Shown: positions 13,326 through 17,289 of the stretch, piece after piece | Layout: every line of letters starts with the position of its first letter | How positions within the stretch are numbered: position 1 is the stretch's first letter | NCBI GenBank assembly: GCA_030753015.1 | Contig: JASMDC010000001.1 | Location: 165,467-229,466, forward strand | DNA: 64,000 nt | Source: Candidatus Undinarchaeales archaeon | Lineage (GTDB): Archaea > SpSt-1190 > JASMDC01 | Reading direction: 5' to 3' | Translations under genes and position numbers: made by a program | The notes under the pieces: model-generated | Database searches by the model: none | What the model was told of the DNA's origin: nothing | The model's input: only the letters and a program-made list of their open reading frames with translations

Positions 13326-13505
13326 GTTACGACTACGGGAGGGGCGGCTCCTGTGCAGATGATGCCTCGAACACAGCGAGGTCGATGACGAGTTCACTGG
13401 ATACAAGCTTGAGATTCATAATGATAGGGTAAGCAGTTAGGGCCTGTAAACTGATTACTATATCATTTAGAATTCGTCAACAATCCAGACACCAGAAATG
13501 ACATC
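13326..13505. other. Intergenic left flank of the cassette island
   Basis: AT content rises sharply from about 13400. No gene is supported. A GTTAGGGC at 13435-13442 resembles an attC end but has no clear partner, so it is not called. Confidence 0.4.
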
Positions 13506-13652
13506 GCATAACCACTATTATCGCGTCGTGGTGGAAATTCGGTAATTCGGATATCCACATGGGCGTTATTCAGGCTGAGGGGGCGACAACGTAGGTGTGC
13601 CTCTTACAGTCATTTGGAAGGAAAAGCGACGTCGGATAACCCCTTGTTATAC
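13506..13652 (+). repeat. attC-like recombination site 1
   Basis: A 147-base element bounded by GCATAAC (13506-13512) and GTTATAC (13646-13652), the inverted R'' and R' core boxes of integron attC sites. Inside, TTATCGCGTCG near the left end is an imperfect inverted match to CGACGTCGGATAA near the right end. A further hairpin (GTGGA...TCCAC, 13530-13558) lies between. The GTTATAC box is followed by GGCGTTGG, similar to the GCCGTTG after site 2. Length nearly equals that of site 2. Confidence 0.5.
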
Positions 13653-13712
13653 GGCGTTGGCGTTCTTGGTAAAGAAGGTTATTTAGCTTAGGCTTGTCAT
13701 TTCTGTATACAC

Positions 13713-14690
13713 ATGCCCTTTGCCAGTCCATTGAGTTCCCTACTTGCTATAGGGCTTATTGCATTTGTATGGATTGTGCTCTCGTGGGAGATAGTTTTCA
13801 TATTTCTTACAATAATGAGAAAGATTCCAGGAAAGCTGCTCAAAGATCATTTCAAAGAGGAAAAATACCGAAAGCTCATCTCTTCAAAACCAGCTTGGTT
13901 GATGCACATTCTCTTCATCTTTGTAATTATTTGTCTTTTCTGGGGCTATCTTGTAGAACCCTATCGTTTACATATTGAAAGAATTCAAGTTGAAACGAAG
14001 AAGATAGCAGCTGGGAGTACCGTCCGAATCGTACATTTAACAGACTCTCATTCCGTTGGAAGAGTCCGCAACGAAGCAAAGGTGACGGAGCTTGTTACAT
14101 CCTTGAATCCAGATATCGTCGTCTTTACAGGGGATGTACTCTCTGCTCCCGAAGGGCTTCCCATGTTCAAGGAAATGATGAAACCATTGTCTGCGCAAGG
14201 CGGAATCTTTGGAGTCAAAGGGAATTGGGATGAATGGTACTGGAATGAAATGGACCTCTTTGGGGGGACTCCAATAAAGGAACTGAAATCGGACCATGTC
14301 AATGTTACAATAAGGAATCAGACGATCTCTGTAATTGGAATTGGATTCGGACGTGAGATGTTATTGGAAGAATCAATTGAAGGAATCCACGAAGAACAGT
14401 ATAAGATCCTTCTGTATCACAAGCCCGATGAGATAAAGAATGCAAGAGATCTTGGAATAGACCTCTATCTCACAGGTCATACTCATGGGGGTCAGATAAG
14501 ATTGCCATTCTATGGGGCAATGATGACGCTATCGGATTATGGTAAGAAGTACGAATCGGGGTTATTCAGAGAAGGAGATACAACAATGTATGTTTCTCGA
14601 GGGATTGGTACAGAGGATGATGGTCTACTTCGAGCTAGGTTCCTTTGCCCACCAGAGATTACGTACATAGAAATAATTGGTACGGGTTAA
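13713..14690 (+). CDS. Membrane-anchored metallophosphoesterase (cassette gene 1)
   Basis: A 325-residue protein. Two N-terminal membrane segments (residues ~8-33 and ~66-84) are followed by a calcineurin-like phosphoesterase domain of the YkuE/YaeI type. Motifs in order are LTDSHS (D-x-H), FTGDVL (GD), KGNWDEW (variant of GNHD), the YHKPD histidine and GHTHGGQ. Bacterial YkuE-like proteins act at the membrane, and some hydrolyse UDP-diacylglucosamine or related phosphoesters; the substrate here is open. The gene is clearly more AT-rich than its neighbours and ends 13 bases before attC-like site 2, which is how integron cassette genes sit. It was probably acquired from bacteria. A TTATTTAG at 13678-13685 might serve as an archaeal TATA box. 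Confidence 0.85.
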   Translation: MPFASPLSSLLAIGLIAFVWIVLSWEIVFIFLTIMRKIPGKLLKDHFKEEKYRKLISSKPAWLMHILFIFVIICLFWGYLVEPYRLHIERIQVETKKIAAGSTVRIVHLTDSHSVGRVRNEAKVTELVTSLNPDIVVFTGDVLSAPEGLPMFKEMMKPLSAQGGIFGVKGNWDEWYWNEMDLFGGTPIKELKSDHVNVTIRNQTISVIGIGFGREMLLEESIEGIHEEQYKILLYHKPDEIKNARDLGIDLYLTGHTHGGQIRLPFYGAMMTLSDYGKKYESGLFREGDTTMYVSRGIGTEDDGLLRARFLCPPEITYIEIIGTG

Positions 14691-14703
14691 ATACGTCAAT
14701 GCC

Positions 14704-14846
14704 GTATAACGGTCCGGTGCCATCCGACGCGCCGACGTCTAGCGAAGGAGAGCGAGGTTCAAATCTGTCCCACTCAAGTAGATCGTCGGCGTGTTGGCGG
14801 AGGGCCGACGGGACGGAGGCCCGGAGCCGGATGCATTGAGTTATAC
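14704..14846 (+). repeat. attC-like recombination site 2
   Basis: A 143-base element bounded by GTATAAC (14704-14710) and GTTATAC (14840-14846), exact inverted complements. TGCCATCCG (14718-14726) pairs with CGGATGCA (14828-14835) leaving one unpaired base, and CGCCGACGTCTA (14730-14741) pairs with TAGATCGTCGGCG (14779-14791) again leaving one unpaired base. Single extrahelical bases on a folded strand are the recognition feature of attC sites. It lies directly after one cassette gene and before the next. Confidence 0.6.
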
Positions 14847-14909
14847 GCCGTTGTCCTTTGGTTTTATTAATGTGAATTGAGTTAACTACATAGAAGGGGA
14901 ATCAATAAG

Positions 14910-15116
14910 ATGTATGGTTGGAACTTATCAGATATTCGATGGTGGGGAGGAAAGGTCGATTATCTTACTAAACTCTTCCTTGGAGTTCTTTTATTTGATA
15001 TGGCTCATGTATTAGTTTACAATAGAACGCATTTCTTATTGGATATAATATTAGTTATCTTACCTGTGATTATTGGGTTAATATCATCATGGCAGTTGGA
15101 ACAAATTACTACTTAG
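14910..15116 (+). CDS. Small two-helix membrane protein (cassette gene 2)
   Basis: A 68-residue protein with two hydrophobic helices (about residues 20-36 and 42-58), short polar ends and many aromatics near the start (MYGWNLSDIRWWGG). GAAGGGG at 14894-14900 is a good ribosome site for the ATG. It is AT-rich like cassette gene 1, lies between attC-like site 2 and a half site at 15144, and ends 27 bases before that half site. I recognise no family. Small membrane proteins of unknown role are common cassette cargo. Confidence 0.6.
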   Translation: MYGWNLSDIRWWGGKVDYLTKLFLGVLLFDMAHVLVYNRTHFLLDIILVILPVIIGLISSWQLEQITT

Positions 15117-15143
15117 GGATATTATATACGAGTGGACAATAGC

Positions 15144-15150
15144 GTATAAC
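15144..15150 (+). repeat. Half attC-like site (left box only)
   Basis: GTATAAC preceded by AGC, matching the left box of site 2. No matching GTTATAC follows within 150 bases, so this third site appears truncated. The mobile-type gene ending at 15259 lies just beyond. A GTTATGCC occurs at 16925-16932 on the far side of that gene, but relating the two is speculative. Confidence 0.4.
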
Positions 15151-15258
15151 TACCTATATCTGCCCTTTTTGTTCCGATGAAGTGTCCTTCGTCCTTAGTC
15201 GTGTATCGCCCCTGATGCGCTCTAGGTATCTTCACTTTCCGAGATCATTGCAGATGAG

Positions 15259-16866
15259 TCAAGTTTTCGGAGCCCGTTTCGAAAGCATCGCCCCATCGAT
15301 GATCTTCCCGATCTCGCGGTCCACGTCCCTGAAGGCGCGTGCGAGTGGTCGAGGGATCGGGTCGTCGGGCTCCATCGCTGCAAAACCCGGACCGAACACG
15401 CGCGCATTCATCTTGGTGAAGAACATCGACACCTTCATTCCGTACGGCGTGAGGAGGTAGCTGTTTGTGTGGGGCACACGCCAGATGATACCCTTCAAGC
15501 GGAGCCGACGCAGGTCGTACGTCATCTGGCCGCTCAAGTAGGTCGTATGTCCATCATCAAGTAGGTCAGCCATCCCCATGCGCAGGTCCTTATGGGTGAA
15601 GCCGTGCGCTGCATGCAGGAACAAGGTGAGCGTCAGGAAGAGGCACATCACGCGCTTGTCACCAAAGCGCAGGCCTGACGCCCGTCGACCGTCTTCCGTG
15701 ACGGTGGGCTGCACCACACGTTCCACGCCCTCCTGCGAGAGGGCACAGTCCTGGCTGACGCGCTCGACGTCAAGTAGACGCCGGTTCGTCATACGACCGA
15801 TCTTCTGGAGATAGGGAAGGTTGTCGAGTCCCTTGTTCACCCTGAAGTCCTTCGGGTTGTTGATGGTGGTCTCCGTGCGAAGAGCACGGTTCTCCTTGAA
15901 ATACTGCTTGACTTGGTTCCTCTTGTAGTTGAAGTGGAGGCTGGGATGGACGCCCTGATTGATGACCCTGGTCCGGAACTTCCCGGGAGTGGCCTTCGTG
16001 ATGCGGCGGTCGAACACAACACTGATGCCGTCGGGCCTCCCCAGATCGATGTTCTCCCTTATGACGCCCTCAAAGAACCGTCTCCCGTTCTGGGGACGGT
16101 CGAAGACCTGGGTGCGGCTTACCTCCATTTGCCAGATGGAAAGCTTGTGACCGTACCCCGCTTCGATGCTCTCGTCACTCAATGGCCAGGGAAGACGTTC
16201 CCGCCATCGGGTGAAGAACTCCCTGATCTGCGTGGGACCGAGCCGGTCACAGATCTCTTGTAGCCTTTCGGGGTCGGTGCAGGAGCGGAAGCCGTTGTCC
16301 AGCGGCTCGAAGGGGATGCCCTCCTTCCGTAGTTGCTGCTTGGCCCACTCATGGCCGTTCAGGCAGACCTTGACCGGGAAGGGGACATAGGTGCAGACCT
16401 TGATGAACCCGGGACCGAACTCCTTGTCCTTGATGTAGAAATAGATGTGGTTGACATTGGCTGGCTGACGAGAGAGATCAAAGTAAACACGGCCCTTCTT
16501 CACCTTCTTGTACCCCTTGAAGGCTATCGCCCGCTCCTGGGCTATGCCGATGAAGACGACACCCTCCTCCTTATCGAACTTCTTGAGGTACTTGGCGGCG
16601 ATGTCGTCCTTGCGTTCACCACGCTTGAAGTGGATGATGGGGGTGTAGTTATCTCGTGCGAAGAGCTCGACGCGTGCCTTGAAGGTCGTCGTCATCTTCT
16701 TGAACAACGCAGGTGAGGGAATGGGATAGCCACGCTCACGAAGGTAGTAGACGAGTTGTCCGGATGTCTGGAGTGTGGGGATGTAGCCGTTCAGGTAGAT
16801 CCTGTCCATGCACTCGATGTCGAGCGTCACATGCTTGGAAAGGAGTTCGTTGATATTGACGGCCAT
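15259..16866 (-). CDS. Conserved mobile-type protein of unknown function
   Basis: A 535-residue protein opening MAVNINELLSKHVTLDIECMDRIYLNGYIP. I recognise this as a widespread bacterial family (HVTLDxECxDRIYLNGYVPxLQ, then RGYPIPSPALF, FxKGERKDD, GVVFIGIAQE and a VCLNGHEWAKQQ block), often in several copies per genome, with no assigned activity that I can recall. The spread suggests a mobile or phage-linked origin. It could be a nuclease or transposase-like enzyme, but I see no confident catalytic motif. It lies beside a broken attC-like site in an otherwise archaeal chromosome, which supports horizontal transfer. GC content is closer to the host than to the cassettes. Confidence 0.6.
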   Translation of the reverse strand: MAVNINELLSKHVTLDIECMDRIYLNGYIPTLQTSGQLVYYLRERGYPIPSPALFKKMTTTFKARVELFARDNYTPIIHFKRGERKDDIAAKYLKKFDKEEGVVFIGIAQERAIAFKGYKKVKKGRVYFDLSRQPANVNHIYFYIKDKEFGPGFIKVCTYVPFPVKVCLNGHEWAKQQLRKEGIPFEPLDNGFRSCTDPERLQEICDRLGPTQIREFFTRWRERLPWPLSDESIEAGYGHKLSIWQMEVSRTQVFDRPQNGRRFFEGVIRENIDLGRPDGISVVFDRRITKATPGKFRTRVINQGVHPSLHFNYKRNQVKQYFKENRALRTETTINNPKDFRVNKGLDNLPYLQKIGRMTNRRLLDVERVSQDCALSQEGVERVVQPTVTEDGRRASGLRFGDKRVMCLFLTLTLFLHAAHGFTHKDLRMGMADLLDDGHTTYLSGQMTYDLRRLRLKGIIWRVPHTNSYLLTPYGMKVSMFFTKMNARVFGPGFAAMEPDDPIPRPLARAFRDVDREIGKIIDGAMLSKRAPKT

Positions 16867-17289
16867 CAGTAGTGATGAGGCTCCTGAGAGTTATCCCTCT
16901 TTCCATGAGGATGACTAGCCTTTGTTATGCCATTGATTCACTCGACGGTTTGAGGCGAAGCTTCGCTAGTATACGAAAGAACAGTCATACTCCAGTAGTC
17001 CGATAAAATCTCAGCAACGTCTTTATCACGAACTCGATGTCCGATATAAGTCCATGTCGCATTTTTATCCGAACGTCCGAGATGACGGACCCGGTCCTCG
17101 TCATGTATCCGACTTGCGGTTCGGATATCACAGGTCCCTTATAGACCCGATCCATCCGCTCCGAAACCCTTATACCTTCACGCCGTCTACTTCTTTATCG
17201 AGGCGGATGACCGCACATCGATGTAAGAGCCTAACCGGGCTATGACAGGACCTAGGGTAGGAGACGCCTCGCTTCCTTCTGTCAGAGGC
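16867..17289. other. Intergenic region, no gene supported
   Basis: About 420 bases between two minus-strand genes. The middle is AT-rich with several short inverted repeats (for example TCCGAACGTCCGAGATGACGGAC near 17070). A 63-codon frame at 17054-17245 has no recognisable sequence, promoter or ribosome site. The right end probably holds the 3' end of the transcript from 19824. Confidence 0.4.

What the first reader, a model, noticed from the sequence alone, without database searches (positions are those of the whole stretch)
13506..15150. Integron-like gene cassettes (attC sites, no integrase) in an archaeal chromosome
Two elements of 147 and 143 bases are bounded by GCATAAC/GTATAAC and GTTATAC core boxes. 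Site 2 has two inner stems with single unpaired bases (14718-14726 with 14828-14835; 14730-14741 with 14779-14791), the feature integrases read on a folded strand. Each is preceded or followed by one AT-rich gene ending 13-27 bases before the next box. No integrase gene is in the window, so this fits a cluster of attC sites lacking integrase. Integrons have been reported in some archaeal genomes, so this would be a fresh example and a route for bacterial genes into archaea.
Basis: partly seen in the sequence, partly recalled or inferred. Interest (0 to 1): 0.85.

Follow-up and report, generated by a model that had tools for sequence, protein, structure and literature searches.

The report
Scattered gene-cassette system in an archaeon
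The window holds one of at least nine scattered landing sites of an integron-like system in an archaeal genome, where foreign genes such as toxin-antitoxin pairs sit as swappable cassettes separated by DNA that folds into a conserved hairpin; no standard integron integrase was found.

Summary
Site 2 (14704-14846) is a real attC-like site. BLAST against the window's own 3.85 Mb genome, then profile searches, found at least 18 relatives on five other cassette arrays. A model built without the window site hits it at E 1.6e-18. Sixteen aligned sites show strong compensatory pairing (60 double-change cells against 24 in shuffles). In 16 of 16 testable cassettes, including both in the window, the start matches the cassette's own end far beyond the 7-base box (0 of 20,000 permutations). 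This is the mark of integron cassettes.

Site 1 (13506-13652) is not an attC. It is the inner end of a ~240-bp platform present in nine copies, conserved in sequence up to G|TT, where locus-specific cargo begins; it looks like an attI.

Cargo is AT-rich: toxin-antitoxin pairs, enzymes and even an archaeal TATA-binding protein, which occupies two different arrays. No IntI passes its model. The only full-length candidates are IntI/XerA-like recombinases lacking the IntI-specific insert.

Archaeal integrons are known (PMC9668308). Dispersed platforms without a linked integrase and the branched attC family appear to be a new variant. Recombination is inferred, not shown.

The parts
13415..13646 (+). 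LEFT platform (attI-like): palindrome 13422-13465 plus ~180 conserved bases, ending at the crossover-like G|TT
   Evidence: nine copies in the genome at 72-96% identity; conservation stops at (C)ATAACCC(A)CTG|TT
13627..13659 (+). putative recombinase core site: arm CGACGTCGGATAAC, spacer CCCTT, inverted arm GTTATACGGCGTTG
   Evidence: direct reading; the pattern CGNATAAN{6,7}TTATNCG is unique in the genome
13647..14840 (+). cassette 1: own start (TTATACGGCGTTGGCG), metallophosphoesterase gene, own R'' and attC
   Evidence: start matches rc of own end: 7/7 in the box, 8/10 in the first ten bases beyond
13713..14690 (+). metallophosphoesterase, 325 aa, LpxG/YaeI-like, N-terminal hydrophobic segments
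   Evidence: PF00149 6e-10; LpxG model 1.3e-31 and YaeI model 2.7e-30, both below cut-off
14704..14846 (+). attC-like site 2 (R'' 14704-14710, L'' ~14718-14726, L' 14828-14835, R' 14840-14846)
   Evidence: leave-one-out profile hit E 1.6e-18; covariation of the family
14841..15150 (+). cassette 2: own start (TTATACGCCGTTGTCC), ORF68, own R'' 15144-15150; its attC stem is not recognisable
   Evidence: start matches rc of own end: 7/7 in the box, 8/10 beyond
14910..15116 (+). 68-aa ORF, hydrophobic, no family
   Evidence: GC3 0.30
15151..15225 (+). RIGHT flank type A
   Evidence: 77-80% to C73:52378-52472 and C73:100390-100486, conserved from the R'' box on
17019..17137 (.). continuation of the RIGHT flank, separated by the 535-aa gene 15259-16866
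   Evidence: 76% to the C73a right flank

Best explanation
This is a gene-cassette array of an integron-type site-specific recombination system. LEFT platforms (attI-like, double-stranded, conserved in sequence) receive cassettes at G|TT. Each cassette is a circle-capable unit whose start (R') and end (R'') are complementary and meet at its own folded attC-like site of 130-150 bp. Several platforms share recombination functions in trans. The most likely enzyme is one of the IntI/XerA-like tyrosine recombinases encoded elsewhere in the genome (contigs C31, C76). Shown here: platform copies, attC-family homology, compensatory base pairing, cassette-specific matched ends, and the same TBP cassette in two contexts. 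Inferred: single-strand folding as the substrate, circular intermediates, present activity, and the identity of the enzyme.
For: Nine LEFT copies with unrelated cargo after G|TT. At least 19 attC-like sites on six arrays, with the window site found by a model that never saw it (E 1.6e-18). Covariation: 87.5% of cells paired, 19 of 33 pairs with double changes, 60 double-change cells against 24 shuffled, and slid controls at 33-43% paired. 16/16 cassettes with own-end match: mean score 9.3 against 4.2 between cassettes, 0/20,000 permutations. The same kind of match, shorter, is seen in bacterial cassettes. The TBP cassette lies after LEFT on C44 and after an attC on C53 (88% over 691 bp), homology starting at the box. 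Cargo is toxin-antitoxin-like pairs, RibD/DHFR, ICMT and others, mostly low GC3. Recombinases are 33-36% identical to IntI1 and share its RSPLD tail.
Against: No IntI over the TIGR02249 cut-off. The recombinases lack the ~40-residue IntI insert and none is shown to be linked to an intact platform. A covariance model of bacterial attC does not hit, and the archaeal model does not hit bacterial attC. Last cassettes run from R'' into RIGHT without a complete attC. G.T pairs exceed A.C on the top strand (59:18), whereas bacterial integrons recombine the bottom strand. Everything is from one MAG.
Confidence: 0.82

Rival explanations
1. Relic CALIN: cassettes captured in the past by a bacterial-type or lost IntI; nothing moves now. 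(This overlaps with the best explanation, differing on present activity and enzyme.)
For: No IntI in a 98.9% complete assembly; degenerate sites (C87 s4 R'', C82 site 1), C53 recombinase remnant and a stop in the C76 recombinase.
Against: Near-exact matched cassette ends (15 of 16 bases in C87 cassette 4) and an intact recombinase reading frame on C31 argue against long inactivity, but do not prove activity.
Confidence: 0.35
2. Xer/dif-module system: double-stranded dif-like sites recombined by XerA, no folding.
For: LEFT edges look like inverted arms with a 5-6 base spacer; the recombinase passes the archaeal XerA model (224.7 vs cut-off 220).
Against: Spacer sites between cassettes keep pairing through compensatory changes instead of sequence; boxes are cassette-specific; the dif-like pattern occurs once in the genome.
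Confidence: 0.1
3. Family of transposons with conserved ends and captured cargo, terminal inverted repeats being the boxes.
For: LEFT and RIGHT ends are conserved at several loci; units are bounded by 17-18 base inverted repeats.
Against: Inverted ends are cargo-specific, not element-specific; no target duplications seen at the window units; arrays with several cassettes separated by a second conserved site are unexplained.
Confidence: 0.08
4. The attC-like elements are structured RNA genes that merely lie between genes.
For: G.T over A.C bias of 26:4 in the inner helix for the top strand.
Against: No Rfam match (gathering thresholds, window only); the elements end at R boxes that pair with the ends of the neighbouring cassettes.
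Confidence: 0.08

Closest known systems
Archaeal integrons / CALINs (Ghaly et al. 2022, PMC9668308)
   Same: cassette arrays with folded attC-like sites in an archaeal MAG, toxin-antitoxin cargo, mostly no intI nearby
   Different: at least nine repeated attI-like platforms; no IntI with the specific insert; sites not found by my bacterial attC model; whether this MAG was in that survey is unknown
Sedentary chromosomal integron of Vibrio (VCR arrays)
   Same: many cassettes, attC conserved within the genome (~130 bp), matched cassette ends
   Different: Vibrio has one attI next to intI; here platforms are dispersed, matched ends reach 15-19 bases, and the fold has a three-way junction
XerA/dif and plasmid dif modules
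   Same: IntI/XerA-type recombinase, inverted arms with short spacer, toxin-antitoxin cargo
   Different: structure-conserved rather than sequence-conserved sites between genes

Membership tests
integron | intI gene with the IntI-specific insert | tested here: not met
   no hit over the TIGR02249 cut-off; recombinases on C31 and C76 lack the region of IntI1 ~192-228
integron | attI site receiving cassettes | tested here: inconclusive
   LEFT platform conserved to G|TT with variable cargo behind it, nine copies, but none next to an intI
integron | attC sites with R and L boxes that pair in one folded strand | tested here: met
   compensatory changes in the L stem and inner stems; recombination itself not tested
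integron | cassettes of about one gene or gene pair plus attC, arranged in tandem | tested here: met
   arrays on C29, C53, C82, C87, C26 and in the window
integron | recognition by a standard attC covariance model | tested here: not met
   own model of gammaproteobacterial attC: no hit in window, arrays or genome; IntegronFinder itself could not be run
integron | integrase-dependent excision and insertion | not testable with these tools
   needs an assay
Xer/dif modules | repeated near-identical 28-bp dif sites flanking cargo | tested here: not met
   dif-like pattern CGNATAAN{6,7}TTATNCG occurs once in the genome; boxes are cassette-specific
TIR transposon | element-specific inverted ends with target duplication | tested here: not met
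   ends are cargo-specific; no duplication by direct reading of the window units

The most novel reading that the evidence does not exclude
A distinct archaeal class of integron: many dispersed attI-like platforms served in trans by an IntI/XerA-type recombinase without the IntI-specific insert, using a branched attC family whose cassettes carry 15-19 base matched ends. It would be an intermediate between Xer/dif recombination and classical integrons.
Probability: 0.4. Interest if true: 0.92.

Novelty: new variant of a known kind. Interest (0 to 1): 0.8.

Why it matters
Integrons were long thought bacterial, and archaeal ones are known mostly as attC clusters without a resident enzyme. Here an archaeal chromosome carries a whole family of platforms and cassettes with evidence of cassette exchange, including a core archaeal transcription factor (TBP) as a cassette. 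It makes testable whether a Xer-like recombinase without the IntI insert can work folded attC sites, which bears on how integrons arose, and points to a search blind spot: model-based scans trained on bacterial attC may miss such systems.

Tried and rejected
Rfam: nothing. Folding energies of single sites are uninformative: site 1 and many real Vibrio sites do not form the core stem in the minimum-energy fold. The viral hit to GTTATACGCCGTTGTC is coding sequence, a chance match. A search for relatives of the phosphoesterase in 85,000 genomes found none. No IntI at E <= 1e-55 in 394 archaeal relatives (no positive control rang, so weak). The archaeal SSU search found no 16S in the assembly. I first took site 1 as an attC with canonical spacers; the repeat search overturned this. 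A reversed reading (RIGHT = attI) was considered and set aside because the TBP cassette joins LEFT and an attC at the same G|TT.

Full report
Observation. The four boxes, their spacings and the two genes are as described, and a third R''-like box lies at 15144. Chance is excluded: only four box pairs occur in the 229-kb contig, the two described are the only ones with a good inner stem, and no simulated contig had two such pairs close together. The genes differ sharply from the host in GC3.

Host. The window lies in a 229-kb contig of a 3.85-Mb, 117-contig assembly (98.9% complete, 5% contamination) with no genus-, family- or order-level relative held. The neighbouring 844-aa protein scores best with the archaeal GlmM model, and its best relative by coverage is from a Sigynarchaeota MAG at 44%. 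TATA-binding proteins lie inside one array and beside another platform. The arrays are therefore in archaeal DNA, although a MAG cannot exclude every misbinned contig.

What the insert is. BLAST of the insert against its own genome split it into three kinds of repeat. LEFT (13415-13657) has copies on C73 (two), C87, C29 (second locus), C11, C62, C95 and C44. RIGHT type A has copies on C73 (two). Site 2 has relatives on C87 and C26. Alignment of LEFT shows 85% column identity that stops at G|TT, after which each locus has different cargo. RNAalifold on LEFT gives no covariation support (term +0.27), so LEFT is conserved as sequence, like an attI.

The attC-like family. Seeds from the window, C87 and C29 found further sites on C53 (five), C82 (four) and C26 (two); a covariance model confirmed them (in part circular because these sites trained it). 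Leave-one-contig-out profiles recover every aligned site, 3e-30 to 4e-5 for a 4-Mb search, and the window site at 1.6e-18 within the window. Sixteen sites fold into an R stem, an L stem, and a three-way junction with two hairpins; double changes, pairing and slid controls all separate clearly from background.

Cassette logic. In bacterial integrons a cassette's first bases and its R'' box come from the same circle. I found that bacterial cassettes match modestly beyond the box. Here all 16 testable cassettes match strongly with themselves and less with others. In the window both cassettes do so (8 of the first 10 bases beyond the box). The TBP cassette occurs directly after LEFT on C44 and after an attC on C53, with homology beginning at the R' box; its right boundary on C44 is decayed. 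This fits cassette exchange at G|TT and supports reading LEFT first.

Cargo. Besides the phosphoesterase and ORF68, arrays carry an antitoxin-like ORF with a weakly ParE-like partner (C73a), MNT/HEPN-like pairs (C73b, C62), a ParE toxin with antitoxin (C53), a YoeB-like pair (C87, weak), a RibD/DHFR-like enzyme (C95), an ICMT-like methyltransferase (C29) and TBP (some assignments are by eye from the sequence).

Enzyme. No IntI passes its cut-off. Two recombinases on C31 and one on C76 (with an internal TAG) are 33-36% identical to IntI1 and share its RSPLD tail, but lack the IntI insert. One of them passes the archaeal XerA model, whose name already reads 'site-specific tyrosine recombinase/integron integrase'. 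C53 has a recombinase remnant beyond its array. RIGHT-like sequence lies upstream of the C31 and C76 genes. This is circumstantial; the enzyme is inferred.

Open points. Last cassettes pass from R'' into RIGHT without a full attC. The window RIGHT is interrupted by 1.8 kb holding the 535-aa gene. G.T bias favours the top strand or an RNA. The genome was sampled only in part for attC-like sites, so counts are lower bounds.

Verdict. An integron-like cassette system in an archaeon is well supported. Membership in integrons sensu stricto is not established because the IntI feature was tested and not met. Archaeal integrons as such are known (PMC9668308); dispersed platforms and this site family are the new part as far as I could check.

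Noticed in passing
window 13422-13465; C62:12819-12861; C73:53282-53325; C73:98955-98998: Palindrome TGATAnnGTAAnCAGTT...AACTGnTTACnATATCA at the outer side of LEFT; in C11 and C44 its left half is replaced by another shared sequence.
   Followed up: partly
window 15259-16866: 535-aa gene without a Pfam match and absent from 60 archaeal relatives lies inside the RIGHT flank of the platform.
   Followed up: no
L119:703-1287 (C53:9702-10286) and L115:384-968 (C44): Archaeal TATA-binding protein carried as a cassette in one array and next to a LEFT platform in another.
   Followed up: yes
L034 (C31:1-2571), L035 (C76:912-1991): Tandem IntI/XerA-like recombinases with an extra ~90-residue N-terminal region; the C76 copy has an internal TAG.
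   Followed up: partly
L062 (Klebsiella sp. wastewater IncP plasmid NZ_CP056487) 11123-14896: Cluster of attC-like sites with GTTATGC boxes about 3-7 kb beyond intI1 on the opposite side from the resistance cassettes.
   Followed up: no
attC-like alignment A2: G.T pairs outnumber A.C mismatches on the top strand, mainly in the inner helices, hinting at an RNA-level or top-strand constraint.
   Followed up: partly
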